A stretch of DNA of 64,000 nt from Cladocopium goreaui (Eukaryota > Sar > Dinophyceae > Suessiales > Symbiodiniaceae): positions 62,001-126,000 of the forward strand of contig CAMXCT020000376.1 of NCBI GenBank assembly GCA_947184155.2, in the 5' to 3' direction. The position numbers were made by a program, and so were the translations under genes. The notes beneath the pieces were generated by a model. The model made no database searches. It worked only from the letters and a program-made list of their open reading frames with translations, and was not told the origin of the DNA. Position 1 is the first letter of the stretch; every line of letters starts with the position of its first letter. Of this stretch, positions 41,951 to 50,900 are shown piece by piece.

Positions 41951-44900
41951 GATGTCGTCGAAACCTTTGCTCTTCGTGGCAGCTTCCTGGCTGAGTTGAG
42001 GGATGATAGGCAGCACGCCTTCTTCAAAGGGTTGGATTCAGCTGATCCAGCCAGTGTCCAAGCTCTTGAGTCGAATCAAGAGTTTCTGATGGAGATGTGC
42101 GCGACCTTGGCCCCTGAACCAATGATTGCACCACATGGTGTGTGGAAGGCCAGGTGATGTATGCATGGTACCTGTTACAATCCTACTTATGTTCCTGTGT
42201 TCAGGCGGCGTTCAAACTGCTGGCCGATCGATATGGCATCTTCCCGCAGAAAACCCTGAAGAAGACGATCAAGGTGGGAGGAGTTTACTGCCTGCAGAGA
42301 ATATGTTGTATGAATTCTGTCCCTGTGTGTGGCAGGATTGGGCCGCTGTCCAAGCTGGACATGCACGTCAGATGACGATGCACGCCCTTGACTTGACCAA
42401 TAGGTCTCAGGGTTCGAGGTGCCACTTGGGTGTTGGGTGGGTTCACTTTCAATGTCAGTAAATATATTTATATAATTACATATATATATATATATTATAT
42501 CTTAAATGATGAATATCTAGAAGGCATGAATATTTCCTTTCCACCCAGGTGTGCCCAGATCATGATGCTCAAGCAATGCATCCGACGTGCTGTCCAAGAA
42601 GGCCTGGTTAGATATACTTATATTTCCAACATTCCCAGCATCCACGGCAAGCTTTTTTTTCCCTCCAAATTTAGACTTATGATCGTGGGGCTGTCTGATC
42701 CGCTGGTCCGCTGGTCCGCTGATCCGCTGGTCCGCTGGTCCGCTGATCCGCTGGTCCGCTGGTCCGCTGGTCCGCTGATCAGCTGATCCGCTGGTCCGCT
42801 GGTCCGCTGATCCGCTGGTCCGCTGGTCCGCTGATCCGCTGATCCGCTGGTCCGCTGGTCCGCTGATCCGCTGGTCCGCTGGTCCGCTGGTCCGCTGGTC
42901 CGCTGGTCCGCTGATCCGCTGATCCGCTGGTCCGCTGGTCCGCTGATCCGCTGATCCGCTGGTCCGCTGATCCGCTGATCCGCTGGTCCGCTGGTCCGCT
43001 GATCCGCTGATCAGCTGATCCGCTCCCCTGTGCTGTTCAGCTGACCCGCTGATCGAGACTTAACAGCGCACTGAGGCCGCTTGTCATCAAAACAATCCGC
43101 AGCTTCAACCACGTTTTCCCATTGCTATCGACCATGGCCCCTGAAATGGGAGATCCCAACCACAAGTCGTAAGTCGGTTCCCCCGTTGTCCTTGCGCAAG
43201 TCTCGCACCTTAGATAATATCAGGTTACAGGCTAGTAGTCAAGCCAAAAGCATGAAGCAGGAAGTATGCAGCACGAGCGATTGTGGGCGCCCTTCTTGGC
43301 CAACCCTTCCTGCAAGGCTTTCCGCCCAAGTCTTTTGCCACCAAGATGCACAAGAAGAAGGAGGGCTGGATGGCGAAGAAATGCCTAGACAAAGCAGGCA
43401 GGGAAGATGCATTGCATGGAAAATCTGAAAGGGCTGGGTCTCAACCTGTCTTGTGAAGATGGATGACAACAGAACAGGGGCCAGTTGTCAGCTGCAGGCA
43501 GCCGCTCTTTTAAACCCGACTTCTGTTGGCAGCTGGCACCATCCTACACGGGATCAATGCGCCCAAGCAGCTTGCCTCAGTCATCCACCCTGGCTCGCTT
43601 TGCACGGCGCTCTTCCTTCTTCTCAGCTGCTTTGTCCATAGCAGCAATCAACTCCCGCAGGCTTAGACGGCAAGCTCTCATGAGGTCGTTGTGGTACGCG
43701 TACGCGACCTTGCCTGCTGCAGTGTCGGGAATCATTTTCAAACACAAAATCTCTCCGTCAAGGCGGAGCAAGTCGGGAAATTGGGAAGCTGCAGCCCTCA
43801 TGACAGCAACCCATTTTTCTTTGGGAAGCGCTTTGCGTCCTTGCCCTCGTTCAGAGCGCATCTTGTCACAATCCTCTTTCCTAGTGATCTTCGGTTTGCC
43901 CGCAAGAAGGGTCTGCTTCAAAACAGTTCTATCGGTGAAATTCCGGCTATGCAAGCCGTCAGGCTGGACAGTGACACCATTGTCTCCAAACCCAAAATCA
44001 CTGGCTCGAACATCCTGCAGGGTCAAAGGTTTCACGGCTGCGCAAGGTTCTGGCTCCGGCAGTCCTGGATTGCCCACTGGTGCTGGCAGTTCTGGCACAT
44101 GTTCCTCCGGCGACTCCTCTGCAGCCTCGTCACCTTCTTCGTCATCGCCCACCTCTGGAATACCTGCGCCAGCTTGGGTCGAAGCAAAGTCTTCAGGCAC
44201 ATATAGGGGATGCGCAAGGCGCCCAAATCATCCGCACGGACGTCTTCCTGCGGCGGCGGTAGGTCTGGGCTGGCTGCTGCATCTCCAAGGGCAATGTGCT
44301 TCAGACGCTGCACCTGGTCTGCGACAATACGTCAGGCTGGATGGGGAACAAGGTGACGTTCAGAACACTCAAAATAACGCGGCCAAGGAGCCAATTGAAG
44401 CAAGGCGTACGCCCGCTGCAAGTGCCCGGGTGTAACCTGCAAAGCTCGCCCCTCCAGCGCTGCAGGGGAGTGGGCGCCGACAAAGATTTCGAAGACCAGG
44501 AGCAAAGCAGCTAAAACCCCTACTTGCCAAGGCGCCGCCCCGAAGCGCTTGGATGTCTCCAGTATCACGAACCACGTGGCTTTGGACATTCATTGCTCCC
44601 TGGTAAGACAGATGCCATGACTCAGCCTCCGAAGTCAAAGTCATAAACTTGGTGTGGCGCTGCGAAATAGGTGGCCACCCTAGCAACGCAATTTCTCAAA
44701 CGGCACACCTCCGGGATTGCAAAGTTTCGGTTCGCTACCCTCCACTCTGCTTCAAAGCCGTTTGGGGCTGCCTCTGATCGCCTGAAGCGGATGCGGGTCA
44801 GCTTGTCATCTAAGAGCCTGACAAAGGTAGCCGTCTTCCGACGGCACATACTCACCGGCAGCATTTTGGGTGAGTTGGGCCGCGGCTTCGTCTTCAAGCC

Positions 44901-47900
44901 TAGCTTCTGCCCATTCTTGGGCAGCTGCGTCTGGCGATGTTGCTTCTTTAGCAACCCCAATGAGGTCTGCAATCTCAGGAGTGAGGGGGACCCACCTGTA
45001 TGGCGAGACTCCTGCACGCGTCTCAACTCAGAAAATCCACAAAGACTGACAGGCTCAGAACTTGAATTCATGACAGTGTTTGTGCTTTACATGCCTTAAT
45101 ACCGAGAAGTGAGCGCTATATCCAGCATGTAACAGTGCAAGAATCGACCCCGTCCTTCCGGCAAGCAAAAGTCTGCGGGGATGTCCTCATGTGGTTGAAC
45201 AGGGCGGCCAGTGGAGATGAGGAACCTTTCCTTGGTGGAGGCTGCGTGGCTTCCAAGCTCGCCCCGCTCCATTGGGATGTAGAAGGCCGGGTGCATGTTG
45301 CAAGTGATGCCCAAGCTTATGGTTTTACCAGGGTTCTCACCGTAGCTCCCTGCCGTCTTGGTGGCACGAGCACTAGACCCAAATTGCAAGAGCTTGTTGA
45401 ACGCGCTCTGGTACGGGTTGACTTTGCTTTTTGATTTCTCTCTCGTTGTTGCATTTGAGTCGGACAACAGGCCAAGGCTCAGCAAGAAGTCGTAGGCTTC
45501 ATCAAAGTTGCCTAGCAAGCCGTACCAGCAACGCCCAGACCAATCTCCTGGCAGCTTGTCTGCGTTGCGGACTTGGTTCCAGTCAGCAGAGCAACGGTGA
45601 AACCATTCTTCCGGTGTGGCGCTGGCAACAGTCGCAGAAGCGATTCTTGGCTTCAAATACCTGCAGCAGCGGGGTCACTTGTGTCTTTTGGTTCCTGGCA
45701 AAGATTTAGAAACACGTGAAAATTTAACACAAGGTTAGCAAACTGTTCACGCATGGTCAGCGGGGGGCAATTGGACTTTGAAAAGCCCCGCCTCAGGACT
45801 TGAGCCGCTCCCTCCTCAAAGCTTTCCTGCTGCAGCTTGGACATCGCATTCTCCAAGATGACTGTGTCCAACTCTTGCCCCAAAGCCTCTGCGTGTCCAG
45901 TCATGGAAGACTTTCTGGTCTGGGCATAGTTGACATTGACCGCTACCAAAGTCAGAGGCGACGGTGCTGTGGCAAAGATGGCGACCCGCGCGCCATTCGC
46001 CAAAGCACACATCAAAGAAAGACAATGCAAAGCGTAAGGAAATTCAGGATGCGCAGCTCTGACAGAATAGCTTTGGCAAAACTGGTGGCCGGCTTCTCCA
46101 AGGACATACTTGGGGTCAAAACGTCTGTCCACCTCATCCCACATCAGCTTCATGGCGGGCACGTACTGCCCATCGTCAGGAGCCCCGGACATGGCTCCGC
46201 ACGAGAAGCTGCGAACTACCAAATTTGAACCGGGCTACCTAAAGCCGCACCACGATTCTAAAATCAACCTGATCTAGCAAAAGATGGTCACATGTTACAA
46301 GCACCACAGCCCGTTCGAAAAAAGAGCTACGTACCTATGGCGCTCCCAAACTTCAAACCCTAAGCGTCCGAACATTTTTGGCTTGCTACGCAACATCCTC
46401 AGCATCCAAAGAGCCAGCTACCTCCTCCGGCCTGTAGCCTCCCTGCAAAATGATTTCATTGTGGCTCCACGCCATGTCGAGCAAGAAGAACTGAAAACCG
46501 TATTCGTTCATGTGCTTGGTTTGGTGCTTGTATTTGCTGAGCCATGTGAAGGTGAACTCGCAAACTGAAGTCCTGACACCAGCGAGAAGAGCGGAGTTGG
46601 ACGGGAGCTCCGGGTCACATGTTTGCTTGCACCAAGCATCCGTGTGGCCTGCCATGTGGAACTTGTCGCAGACAAAGGTCATGTGAGGTGGCGACAACTG
46701 CGCCGCAGCTTGAGAGTGCGCTGCTCGACGCGCGCAATACTTGTGCAAGTGGCACGCATCATCGTGCACCACTGTCGTCAGGGTCGGCAGCAAAGCTTTG
46801 ACAGCAGCGACGCAGAAGTAGCGCTGGCTCAGAGACTCGCAGCCATAAATCTCTTGCATGTGCAAAATAAGGCCCTCGGACAAGCATACGCAAAGCATGC
46901 CCGCTGACTTGGCAAGTTGCCTCTGGGCAGTACTGCTTTCCTTGTGCGTTGAACATGCAACAGACGCTAAATCCGCTGGATCTGAACATTGCTCAAGCTC
47001 TGCCACGGGTTCAACCTGCGCCTGCAACAGCGGCGGTGCGGGAGAAGGCCCTGCAGTGTCTGAAGGTTGGGGTTCATGAGTACGCTTGCGAAGTTTCAGC
47101 TTCTCCGCCCCAACTTGCCGCAAGTACTTGCTCAAGACAGTGTCTGGCACGGCGGAATCCAAGACCCAAGCCTCCCTGCGAGGTTCGGTCGTTTCCTGGA
47201 GCAAAACCATCAGTTGCTGCCCATCATTGATAGACTTGTGTTGTAGAATCTCAACATCCTGCAAACGCGAGCACAGACCCAAGCACCGACGCTGAAGCCC
47301 TGGGGTTTTAATTCAAAAAAGTAGCCCACGGAAGGAGAAGGCAAACAAAACTGAAAATGTTTGAGGATTCGAGCCAAGACACTGTTCTAGCATTGGCTCT
47401 CCCACTCTTTTCTGACATTCGCATGCTTCAAAATGATCCTACTCTAGGTCCTGAAATCGATGCAAAACAAAAAAAAAGATGGTTTGACTGGCACGCCCTT
47501 GCTGATCCAGGTGTATGAGTTGTGATGCTCCGCAGGCATTTTGTTGCACAAGTGGGGTGTATGGTGTAAGTAAATTTTAGTAAACTTTCGATGGACTCAA
47601 TTCATTCAATTTGAAACCTATAAAAAGGGCTCTTTAACCTATCATTGCCTGTAGTTTGGGCTTTGCTGGCCATGGAAATTCCTCGGGTTGTGCCTTCGTT
47701 GCCCGTTTCGAAATCTGTCTCAGTATCGTTGGACGAAGGAATCGTTCTCACAGCAGCCATGTTTCTCACCTCATGAGGTTCTGGAATCGTTCTCATCGCA
47801 TTGGTTTCTGGAATCGTTCTCATCGCATTGGGGTTAGGAATCGTTCGCGTGACATTGATCGTTCTCAAGCGCATTGGTGTACGGGATCGTTCTCACCACA

Positions 47901-50900
47901 TTGGCTGTTGGAATCGTGCTCAGCATGTCAGTCGGTGTGTGTGAAACAATCTGAAACAACTGCTGCGAACTTTTCTTTCGCGAAAATCTGAAGGGTTGGG
48001 AAAAAAATGCGAATGGGGAAGGTAGCGACTTAAAGCATACCTTTCAGTGTTTCGCAACGTTCTCTCTGAAACCCTACCCTTCAAATTTTTGAGAAAAAAA
48101 AGCGCGCGACACAGAACCTGGACGTAGTGGGCCGGTAGGGTTCCACACAGGGTAGGGAAAGGTAGGCTGGATGTGCAGATAGACACGCATGCTGAGAATG
48201 ACGGGAAGATGTCCAAAAACTAACGCACTGGTCTTAGAAATCGTTCTCATGCCAAGAATCTTTCTCACCGCAGGCATCAGTCTCACCACATTAGAAAGTG
48301 GAATCCTTCTGAATATGCTGAAACGTTTTGAAACGGTTTTCAGACCTGTCTACAGGGCCACGATAGGTTCAAGAACTTTTGCAATGAAAAATGCCTGCCT
48401 GGAACTCTACGCATTTTCGGAATAGAGGCGTTGTTTTGTTTCTGTAAAGATGTAAAGGGAACTTGGAGAATTTTGCCCATTCAATGTTAGTGGAAGTTTT
48501 TTCCATCTTTCGATTCCTTGTCGTTGCTATTTAACCTATCATCTGCAACGGGAAGAAAACATGCATTTCCTTGAGTGATGTCCACTTTGCTATTCTCAGG
48601 CGTTGGTGGTCCCCCGCATCATTTTCTGAAGATTTTACATCTAAAACGGGCAAAAGTAGGGACGGCTATTGGGAATGGGGAAGCTAGAATTAGAACTGTG
48701 TGAGAACGATCTGCGCCAGGAGCTTCACAATGGTGCAAGCAAAAGCAATGCTTGAAAGCAGGCGTTTTTGTGCAGGTGTGGCGCAAAGTTCTGCGGAGGG
48801 TTGGAGAGTAAGAACATCCTGCCACCGCAGCGGCGCAGACTGCCCTCCGGTTCTTTGCATTGCCATCTAAAACAATAACATCGCACCGCATTTTGGCACG
48901 CTGAGCACCTTCCACGGCCTTCCGGCTGAATGCTGCTTGCAATGGACCCAAGAACCTGCACGCCGTGTCCTCCATGGGAGATTGAAAATCTACCACAGAC
49001 AAATCCAAGCCGGCTTCAAGCCCACGCGTCAGCAAGCGCCAGGTGAACCATCCCTGGCTGATCAGCAGCCGCAAGCGTGAAGTGGGGAGACGATGCAGCT
49101 GCGAATTGGTGGCAGCTTGCGCCGTCAGTACGTCGGCTTCACTCGTGAATGATGCGTGCTGACGCACCAAACGCGGGTGGAACTGGCGCAGCCAAGGGAT
49201 ACTAAAACCAAAGCTCGAGGATAGCATGAAACATTGCAAGAGTGGCAGCTCTCCCTGGAACACATGCTTGCCTTTGCGTACGCAGTAGTTGTACCAAAGA
49301 AGCACCCCAAACTCCGGGCATGAAGGCTTTCTACACCGCAGTGGAACATGCAGCTTTTCAACGACTCCACAAAGGTCTATCACTGCCGCAGGCGTGGCAG
49401 AACCTCTGCATTCAGCTAGCCGGGTTTTGCACGCAGAACAGCTCCGAGGCAAGGGGAGCAACTCTTGGGCACAAGTTTCTCTACCGTAGGCAGCAACTCT
49501 GGTCGAGAAGAGAGGTTGCAGCTCAGCTGCCAGATGCACAACCAAACCATCTGAAATCTGCGCAGCCGGGTCTGCATTTCGTATGGCTTCAGCAATCAGA
49601 GCTTGGCTAAACCCGTGCGCCATGAAAAGGAAGAGTCGCAGGCGGGAGAGAAGGTCTTGGGCTCTGCAGTTGCGTGGTTTGTTTCTGGTTGCTCTTCTCA
49701 GCCTTGCGGCGAAATGTATGGACTGTCTTAGTGTGATACGTTTGCGCATGGTCATGGTTCTCTCTCCTGTTTGAAAATAAAGGCACAGCAGGGGCACAAG
49801 CTGCGAACTCTTTCCGTGATCACTGGTCATGTCACGTGGTGCAAGTGTCAGAAATCAAGCTGCAAAACCACCACTGACACCACAAAACCCGGAGCAGGGG
49901 CGGCGGCCTTGTCAAAGCGGAAGGCATTCTACGTGTACAGAAGGTGCTTGCAGGAGACACCTTTTCCTGGCAGGCAAAGGTCACTGAGCAAGATTGCCTT
50001 TGTAGGTATAGACAGGTTGAAAAGTACGTTCTAGAACTTTGCTTTGATCCGCTGATCCGCTGGTGCGCTGATCCGCTGATCCACTGATCCGCTGGTCCGC
50101 TGATCCGCTGGTCCGCTGGTCCGCTGATCCGCTGATCCGCTGATCCGCTGGTCCGCTGATCCGCTGATCCGCTGGTCCGCTGATCCGCTGATCCGCTGAT
50201 CCGCTGATCCGCTGATCCGCTGGTCCGCTGGTCCGCTGATCCGCTGATCCGCTGATCCGCTGATCCGCTGGTCCGCTGATCCGCTGATCCGCTGATTCGC
50301 TGATCCGCTGATCCGCTGATCCGCTGGTCCGCTGGTCCGCTGGTCCGCTGATCCGCTGATCCGCTGATCCGCTGAGCCGCCGCTGGCCCAGACGATATGG
50401 CGATCATGAGTGCAAATTTAGTCAATACCTGCAATGCCCGCCCTCTTGACGTGCCCTGCAGCTTCTGACTTCGATGCACCTGGTGGACCGGAGATTGACG
50501 TGGGCGAGGTGATCAGAAAGAATCTTGAACGGACACGTTCTCAGGTCAGGAGGGCTCGAGTGCAGTGTGAGATTATATTAAAAAAACATATGATTAACAG
50601 TGTGAATCATGCCTGCACACAGGATCTTGCCACTGCAGAGATGGTGGTCAGCAGCGCATCAGAGATGGACCCAGTCAAGGACTCCAACCAGTGTTGTTTG
50701 AATTTGGAACTGTTAGGTTTTCTTTTGCTTGTTTCTTATTTGAATGTGAGGATGTCTCGCCGATGCATCTGGGGACTGCGTCTACATTTGGAGACAAGGC
50801 ACATGGGCAGCAGTGCACACTCCAGTCCAGTCCGGCAATGGTGAAACCTGTCACATGAGTGCATGTGGATTGAATTCTATTTAATTATTTGGAATATAAC

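What the first reader, a model, noticed from the sequence alone, without database searches (positions are those of the whole stretch)
42674..50412. Apparently complete KDZ-type transposon carrying a second gene, in a dinoflagellate intron
Seen: direct repeats CAAATTTA outside, 10/12 inverted ends inside, matched 8-bp-unit arrays, and two - strand genes with open frames. Known: KDZ elements make 8-bp duplications, and CxC-type KDZ transposases carry DGN, DDACH and CE motifs. Inferred: this is a young, possibly autonomous element with a two-gene layout (transposase plus a DUF3987-like protein). I do not recall that combination being described.
Basis: partly seen in the sequence, partly recalled or inferred. 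Interest (0 to 1): 0.88.

Follow-up and report, generated by a model that had tools for sequence, protein, structure and literature searches.

The report
Two-gene KDZ transposon in a dinoflagellate
This is a recently moved dinoflagellate transposon that carries, besides its KDZ transposase, a second gene for a protein distantly like bacterial DUF3987 ATPases, and the two genes are often found together in diverged relatives in the same genome, which suggests that the second protein helps the element move.

Summary
Window 42674-50412 is a complete transposon with an 8-bp target duplication (CAAATTTA) and 10/12 inverted ends. An unoccupied site exists in the same genome at C238, with a single CAAATTTA, 99.07% over 323 bp. 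Nine other copies are 98.4-99.5% identical over the main block. The transposase hits Pfam KDZ (38.8 bits, cut-off 26.6).

The second gene is real. It is under purifying selection (dN/dS about 0.09, dS near saturation). In 37 of 56 loci found genome-wide it lies within 10 kb of a KDZ match on the same strand; chance is about 0.0005 per locus. Co-occurrence reaches about 30-34% identity. Gene order varies.

The second gene is not a Pfam DUF3987 member. It is a remote, collinear profile relative (P 3.4e-4 to 1.5e-4; controls clearly lower).

The window copy itself is not autonomous: gene-2 blocks 3 and 4 are frameshifted, and a nested 1.3-kb element sits at a predicted splice site. Five of ten copies have all six coding blocks open.

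Best reading: a KDZ lineage with an ATPase/helicase-like partner. The partner's function is inferred, not shown.

The parts
42666..42673 (.). left copy of the 8-bp target duplication CAAATTTA
   Evidence: a single copy at the unoccupied site C238
42674..50412 (-). complete KDZ transposon, coding strand minus, 7739 bp including a nested element
42674..42685 (.). left terminal inverted repeat GACTTATGATCG; near-identical in family 2 (about 70% identical inside)
42695..43024 (.). left array of 8-bp units (GCTGATCC/GCTGGTCC), about 41 copies
43577..44200 (-). gene 2, exon-like block 4 (conserved C-terminal region); frameshifted in this copy
44390..45010 (-). gene 2, exon-like block 3; frameshifted in this copy (limits approximate)
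45096..45656 (-). gene 2, exon-like block 2 with the DE and RFL motifs; open (exon limits inferred)
45737..46192 (-). gene 2, exon-like block 1 from a conserved Met, with the Walker-A-like stretch (..RKSS); open; 3' limit inferred
46386..47282 (-). KDZ transposase, C-terminal half with DDACH and CE; open
   Evidence: Pfam PF18758 38.8 bits
47386..48694 (.). nested 1309-bp element TCTAG...TTAGA; sits just after the GT of the predicted transposase intron; absent in 9 of 9 other family-1 copies
47381..47385 (.). TSD ACTGT of the nested element, left
48695..48699 (.). TSD ACTGT of the nested element, right
48697..49830 (-). KDZ transposase, N-terminal half with a Cys-rich (CxC-like) stretch and DGN; open (3' limit inferred)
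50045..50380 (.). right array of 8-bp units, 42 copies, same direct orientation as the left array
50401..50412 (.). right terminal inverted repeat CGATCATGAGTG
50413..50420 (.). right copy of the 8-bp target duplication CAAATTTA

Best explanation
A young copy of a cut-and-paste KDZ transposon family of a dinoflagellate. The family encodes two proteins on one strand. One is a KDZ transposase (DGN / DDACH / CE). The other is a DUF3987-related P-loop-like protein that is found beside KDZ transposases over deep divergence. Shown: exact ends, 8-bp duplications, unoccupied sites, ten near-identical copies, a second gene under purifying selection and linked to KDZ genome-wide, and varying gene order among relatives. 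Inferred: the transposase binds the inverted ends and perhaps the 8-bp arrays, cuts and inserts. The second protein acts in cis or in trans as an ATPase or helicase that helps assemble, unwind or target the transposition complex, as dedicated ATPases do for IS21 (Mu and Tn7 recalled). This window copy has a broken gene 2 and a nested insert. It is now non-autonomous or dead.
For: Ends and TSDs. Unoccupied sites. Nine further copies 98.4-99.5% identical over the main block. KDZ. Co-occurrence: 37 of 56 gene-2 loci have KDZ within 10 kb on the same strand, 0 on the opposite strand among the other 19, chance about 0.0005 per locus. Purifying selection: gene 2 dN 0.163, dS 1.86 over 638 codons between families 1 and 2. 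DUF3987 relation: hhalign score 40.0 (P 3.4e-4, 326 columns) against 60 column shuffles with mean 15.2 and maximum 20.3, reversed profiles 14.5-16.0; five unrelated decoy sequences at most 20.9; 42.6, P 1.5e-4, 360 columns after adding a fragment of a dinoflagellate DUF3987 domain. DUF3987 domains are predicted helicases among primases of mobile elements (PMC5862659, two passages read).
Against: Gene 2 reached no curated cut-off: family-1 protein in Pfam and PHROGs, relatives in Pfam, NCBIfam and PHROGs. Sub-threshold matches of relatives to unrelated families were as good as or better than the DUF3987 one (DUF4494 E 0.019, against DUF3987 E 0.1). Against YfjI alone hhalign gives only 17.1, no better than decoys. 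The AlphaFold model was unusable (mean pLDDT 43), so the fold is not shown. 19 of 56 gene-2 loci had no KDZ detected and 16 of 53 KDZ loci no gene 2; a second, divergent gene-2 query lists nothing near those 16 either. So KDZ elements may exist without it. The window copy and L009 share indels in gene-2 block 4, so an element with a broken gene 2 seems to have moved, in trans at least. No transcript evidence.
Confidence: 0.72

Rival explanations
1. Gene 2 is an accessory passenger, kept for another reason (for example countering host silencing, as TET/JBP genes are thought to do in fungal KDZ elements), not part of the transposition reaction.
For: KDZ elements are known to carry accessory genes (PMC12730594 passages; PMC12477816 passages). 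16 of 53 KDZ loci lack a detectable gene 2. Gene order varies between relatives.
Against: Association down to about 30-34% identity and strong constraint on gene 2 fit a core component better than a recent capture. The DUF3987 relation points to DNA metabolism, not chromatin.
Confidence: 0.35
2. Gene 2 is a replication helicase: the element replicates or moves by a copying mode, as DUF3987 proteins of bacterial mobile elements are predicted to serve replication.
For: DUF3987 domains stand in the place of helicase domains in primase proteins of mobile elements (PMC5862659 passages).
Against: Ends, short duplications and clean unoccupied sites fit ordinary DDE insertion. No Pfam primase domain was found in gene 2.
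Confidence: 0.15
3. The P-loop-like protein is not related to DUF3987; the profile match is chance or convergence of short motifs.
For: Below every curated cut-off; unrelated families match relatives as well or better by Pfam E-value; AlphaFold model of no use; YfjI alone scores like decoys; the first profile of 5 members gave only P 0.0062.
Against: Collinear match over 326-360 columns with Walker A, DE and RFL-like positions in order; score twice the best of 60 shuffles. Block 1 of the distant relative L061 matched only one Pfam model, DUF3987, at the matching end (E 0.1).
Confidence: 0.2

Closest known systems
KDZ (Kyakuja-Dileera-Zisupton) DNA transposons, Pfam PF18758
   Different: Second gene is DUF3987-related, not TET/JBP. 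Two Kyakuja families of that paper make 7-bp TSDs without TIRs, unlike this one. Long direct 8-bp arrays inside both ends. Subgroup not determined here.
Bacterial YfjI / DUF3987 proteins of prophages, phages and plasmids
   Same: Collinear profile alignment over most of the domain, with Walker-A-like ..RKS/GKS, DE, and RFL-like positions.
   Different: Far below the Pfam cut-off; encoded beside a eukaryotic KDZ transposase; no primase part found by Pfam; an own conserved C-terminal region.
IS21 IstA/IstB, Mu A/B, Tn7 TnsB/TnsC
   Same: Two-gene plan of transposase plus ATPase-like partner; an analogy of plan only (IS21 abstract and passages, PMC11208146; Mu and Tn7 recalled).
   Different: No sequence comparison of gene 2 with IstB, MuB or TnsC was made; homology is not claimed.

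Membership tests
KDZ transposons | transposase matches PF18758 above its gathering score | tested here: met
   38.8 bits against 26.6, E 1.1e-9, window ORF 46386-47282; 36.6 bits for the joined exons
KDZ transposons | DGN, DDACH and CE motifs in order | tested here: met
KDZ transposons | 8-bp target duplication | tested here: met
   7 of 12 copies exact, 1 at 7/8, 1 cut off by a contig end, 3 without; single copy at two unoccupied sites
KDZ transposons | membership of the Kyakuja, Dileera or Zisupton branch | not tested
   no reference transposases of the three branches were at hand; 8-bp TSD and TIRs speak against the Kyakuja pattern of PMC12730594
KDZ transposons | N-terminal CxC zinc cluster | tested here: inconclusive
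   Cys-rich stretch seen in ORF 48619-49830, but no Pfam CxC model matched
DUF3987 (PF13148) / YfjI | profile match above the gathering score of 27 bits | tested here: not met
   no match for the window's gene-2 ORFs or the joined family-1 protein nor for relatives L056, L059, L060, save 12.2 bits for L061 block 1; PF13148 over the whole genome rings at 18 places, none a gene-2 locus
DUF3987 (PF13148) / YfjI | collinear domain with Walker-A-like and DE motifs | tested here: met
   hhalign P 3.4e-4 to 1.5e-4 over 326-360 columns, controls lower; KS and DE kept in 6 of 6 members aligned
DUF3987 (PF13148) / YfjI | P-loop NTPase fold | tested here: inconclusive
   AlphaFold2 mean pLDDT 43, pTM 0.26
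IstB/MuB/TnsC helper ATPases | sequence or fold relation | not tested
   no comparison made; analogy only

The most novel reading that the evidence does not exclude
A eukaryotic KDZ transposon lineage works as a two-component machine, transposase plus a dedicated DUF3987-related ATPase/helicase that controls assembly or target choice, a eukaryotic counterpart in plan to IstA/IstB, MuA/MuB and TnsB/TnsC. The direct 8-bp arrays at both ends would be its loading or docking sites.
Probability: 0.3. Interest if true: 0.85.

Novelty: new variant of a known kind. Interest (0 to 1): 0.64.

Why it matters
KDZ elements are little studied DNA transposons (recalled judgement). In the papers held, 'dinoflagellate' with 'Zisupton' gave 0 papers. 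Of 24 papers with at least two of KDZ, transposon and DUF3987, none of the 20 listed holds both KDZ and DUF3987; 4 were not listed. In a six-term search the only KDZ paper among the 15 of 1,988 listed is a coral photoacclimation and microbiome study (listing only). A constitutive ATPase-like partner would make it testable whether eukaryotic transposases can depend on a dedicated regulator as bacterial ones do. The family is young and multi-copy, with open copies and unoccupied sites in one assembly.

Tried and rejected
Direct family searches for gene 2 (Pfam, NCBIfam, PHROGs) gave nothing above a cut-off. The weak matches of relatives were DUF4494 (E 0.019), Codanin-1_C (0.11), SMODS (0.28) and DUF3987 (0.1) in Pfam, ribulokinase (0.2) in NCBIfam, and three PHROGs at 0.09-0.49. 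A PDB profile search gave one chain, a peptidase M16 domain (E 0.028). Scans for close relatives in viral and prokaryotic contigs found none (88 and 108 pattern hits, 0 confirmed). A first hhalign with 5 members gave P 0.0062; a profile of 4 members gave P 5.9e-4. AlphaFold2 on A2 failed in quality, so no fold search was run. Inverted arrays were considered and rejected: they are direct. Target-site preference was considered because the right flanks of L009 and L010 lie at the same point of a tandem host repeat; shared ancestry is as likely. Whether the C238 site is an allele or a paralogue could not be settled, because the flank search did not complete. The host gene and the intron claim were not tested. 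One search left out 16 of 104 gene-2 rows (E above 0.001) and 1 of 88 KDZ rows (E 0.4).
Full report
CHECK OF THE OBSERVATION. The element spans window 42674-50412 between two copies of CAAATTTA. Its inverted ends match at 10 of 12 positions. Arrays of an 8-bp unit lie at 42695-43024 and 50045-50380. In the 5 copies examined the units run in the same direct orientation at both ends, and none is inverted. The own genome (1.166 Gb, 6202 contigs; unnamed) holds nine further copies, 98.4-99.5% identical over the main block, with two pieces in L017 at 98.4 and 99.9%. It also holds a second family about 70% identical inside, with the same kind of ends (L018-L020). Host: 172 exact dinoflagellate spliced-leader sequences, 0 in the reversed control.

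MOBILITY. Of 13 copies (10 of family 1, 3 of family 2), 12 show both junctions; L017 reads N at its left. Seven have exact 8-bp duplications: window CAAATTTA, L010 GGAAGGTT, L013 CTGTGGCA, L014 ATGACTCC, L016 CTATGGTC, L018 AGAGCAGT, L020 AAAAAATT. L013 has lost most of its left inverted end. L015 has 7 of 8. L019 agrees over the three bases left before the contig end. L009 (altered left end), L011 and L012 have none, so rearranged or recombined copies exist. Joined flanks of 7 copies found full-length unoccupied sites for 6, at 85-99% identity; none was listed for L016, in a truncated list. The window site is matched at C238 by a single CAAATTTA in 323 bp at 99.07%. For L015 the site in C557 shows GTGGTGAA. 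Several of these sites lie in repeats, so 'unoccupied' there means a relative of the site.

GENE 1. ORF 46386-47282 matches PF18758 (KDZ) at 38.8 bits, cut-off 26.6. The DGN half lies on 48697-49830. The two halves are separated by a predicted intron (GT...AG, read from sequence, no transcript). In the window copy a 1309-bp element (47386-48694) sits directly after the GT of that intron, with its own ACTGT duplication. It is absent from 9 of 9 other family-1 copies. Of eight relatives of this insert that were fetched, six show matching 5-bp duplications, one of them in a simple repeat.

GENE 2. Four exon-like blocks follow on the same strand, from a Met conserved in family 2. Between families 1 and 2 (L018), dN is 0.163 and dS 1.86 over 638 codons; the ratio is 0.09. 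It is 0.11, 0.13 and 0.09 against L020, L057 and L051. dS is near saturation, so the ratios are rough; for L056 and L039 gene-2 dS was saturated, and pooled KDZ dS was saturated in all six comparisons. All six coding blocks are open in 5 of 10 family-1 copies (L010, L013, L014, L015, L016). The window copy has frameshifts in blocks 3 and 4. L009 shares the block-4 indels; L011 and L012 share a frameshift in the KDZ N-half; L012 has one more in each gene; L017 lacks part of the KDZ C-half (core parts of the blocks against L010). Shared lesions suggest that some broken elements moved in trans.

CO-OCCURRENCE. Gene-2 blocks 1-2 found 104 matches and the KDZ protein 88 (66 of 226 candidates scored); PF18758 gave 16 places, some the same. 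Clustered (88 of the 104 rows, E up to 0.001), 37 of 56 gene-2 loci have KDZ within 10 kb on the same strand; none of the other 19 has it on the opposite strand. Chance is about 0.0005 per locus. The loci are not independent: ten are family 1, and several contigs look like duplicates. In 28 of 37, gene 2 lies 3' of the KDZ pieces found. In 2 (C360, C1618) it lies between the two KDZ halves. In 7 (C1112, C1149, C2146, C2182, C5815, C5977, C608) it lies 5' of the only KDZ piece found. 19 gene-2 loci and 16 of 53 KDZ loci lacked the partner in these searches, which are capped. A second gene-2 query listed nothing near those 16.

WHAT GENE 2 IS. No curated cut-off was reached. Block 1 of the distant relative L061 matched DUF3987 at 12.2 bits, E 0.1; other relatives matched unrelated models weakly, the best DUF4494 at E 0.019. 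A profile of six members aligned collinearly with ten DUF3987 sequences: score 40.0, P 3.4e-4, 326 columns. Sixty column shuffles gave a mean of 15.2 and a maximum of 20.3; reversed profiles gave 14.5-16.0. Five decoy sequences reached at most 20.9, and YfjI alone only 17.1. Adding a fragment of a dinoflagellate DUF3987 domain gave 42.6, P 1.5e-4. K-S of the Walker-A-like stretch and D-E are kept in 6 of 6 members. This is remote relation, not Pfam membership. AlphaFold2 gave pLDDT 43, so the fold is open.

HOW IT MAY WORK. Shown: precise insertion with 8-bp duplication. Inferred: a KDZ transposase acts at the ends, and the second protein serves as an ATPase or helicase partner. DUF3987 domains are predicted helicases in mobile-element primases (PMC5862659, passages). 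IS21 relies on a dedicated AAA+ ATPase (PMC11208146, abstract and passages). The analogy is of plan, not of homology.

NOVELTY. KDZ elements with accessory genes are known: TET/JBP in fungi (PMC12730594, outline and passages) and giant elements in Ectocarpus (PMC12477816, passages). Zisupton and Kyakuja are reported in Chlamydomonas (PMC8226300, passages). No listed paper joins KDZ and DUF3987 (20 of 24 listed), and none holds Zisupton and dinoflagellate. Iyer et al. 2014 was not held, so its gene list was not checked. New variant of a known kind.

Noticed in passing
own genome, e.g. C508:9226-10362, C5923:250683-251819, C143:162801-163937: A separate multicopy family with bona fide DUF3987 domains (18 places, E 2e-21 to 1e-10) inside open frames of 797-3380 aa; none coincides with a KDZ or gene-2 locus found here.
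   Followed up: partly
window 47386-48694; L021-L026: A 1.3-kb element with TCTA...TAGA ends and 5-bp duplications, 94-99% identical elsewhere, landed exactly at a predicted 5' splice site.
   Followed up: partly
C360:212848-217782 and C1618:107962-113666: In these relatives gene 2 lies between the DGN half and the DDACH half of the transposase on the same strand: a nested gene or a split transposase.
   Followed up: no
own genome: C205, C394, C681, C1391, C3395, C5824, C5862, C6062:155968 and others: KDZ matches of equal score in frames of equal length (299 aa), probably one family, with no gene 2 detected nearby.
   Followed up: partly
window 42695-43024, 50045-50380; L073: Long 8-bp arrays in direct orientation at both ends, of varying length among copies; an array-only piece with a family-2-like right end exists at C3480.
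   Followed up: partly
C3591:514226-522833, C3041:33495-36930 and others: The L010 and L009 right flanks lie at the same point of a tandemly repeated host sequence with many unoccupied units.
   Followed up: no
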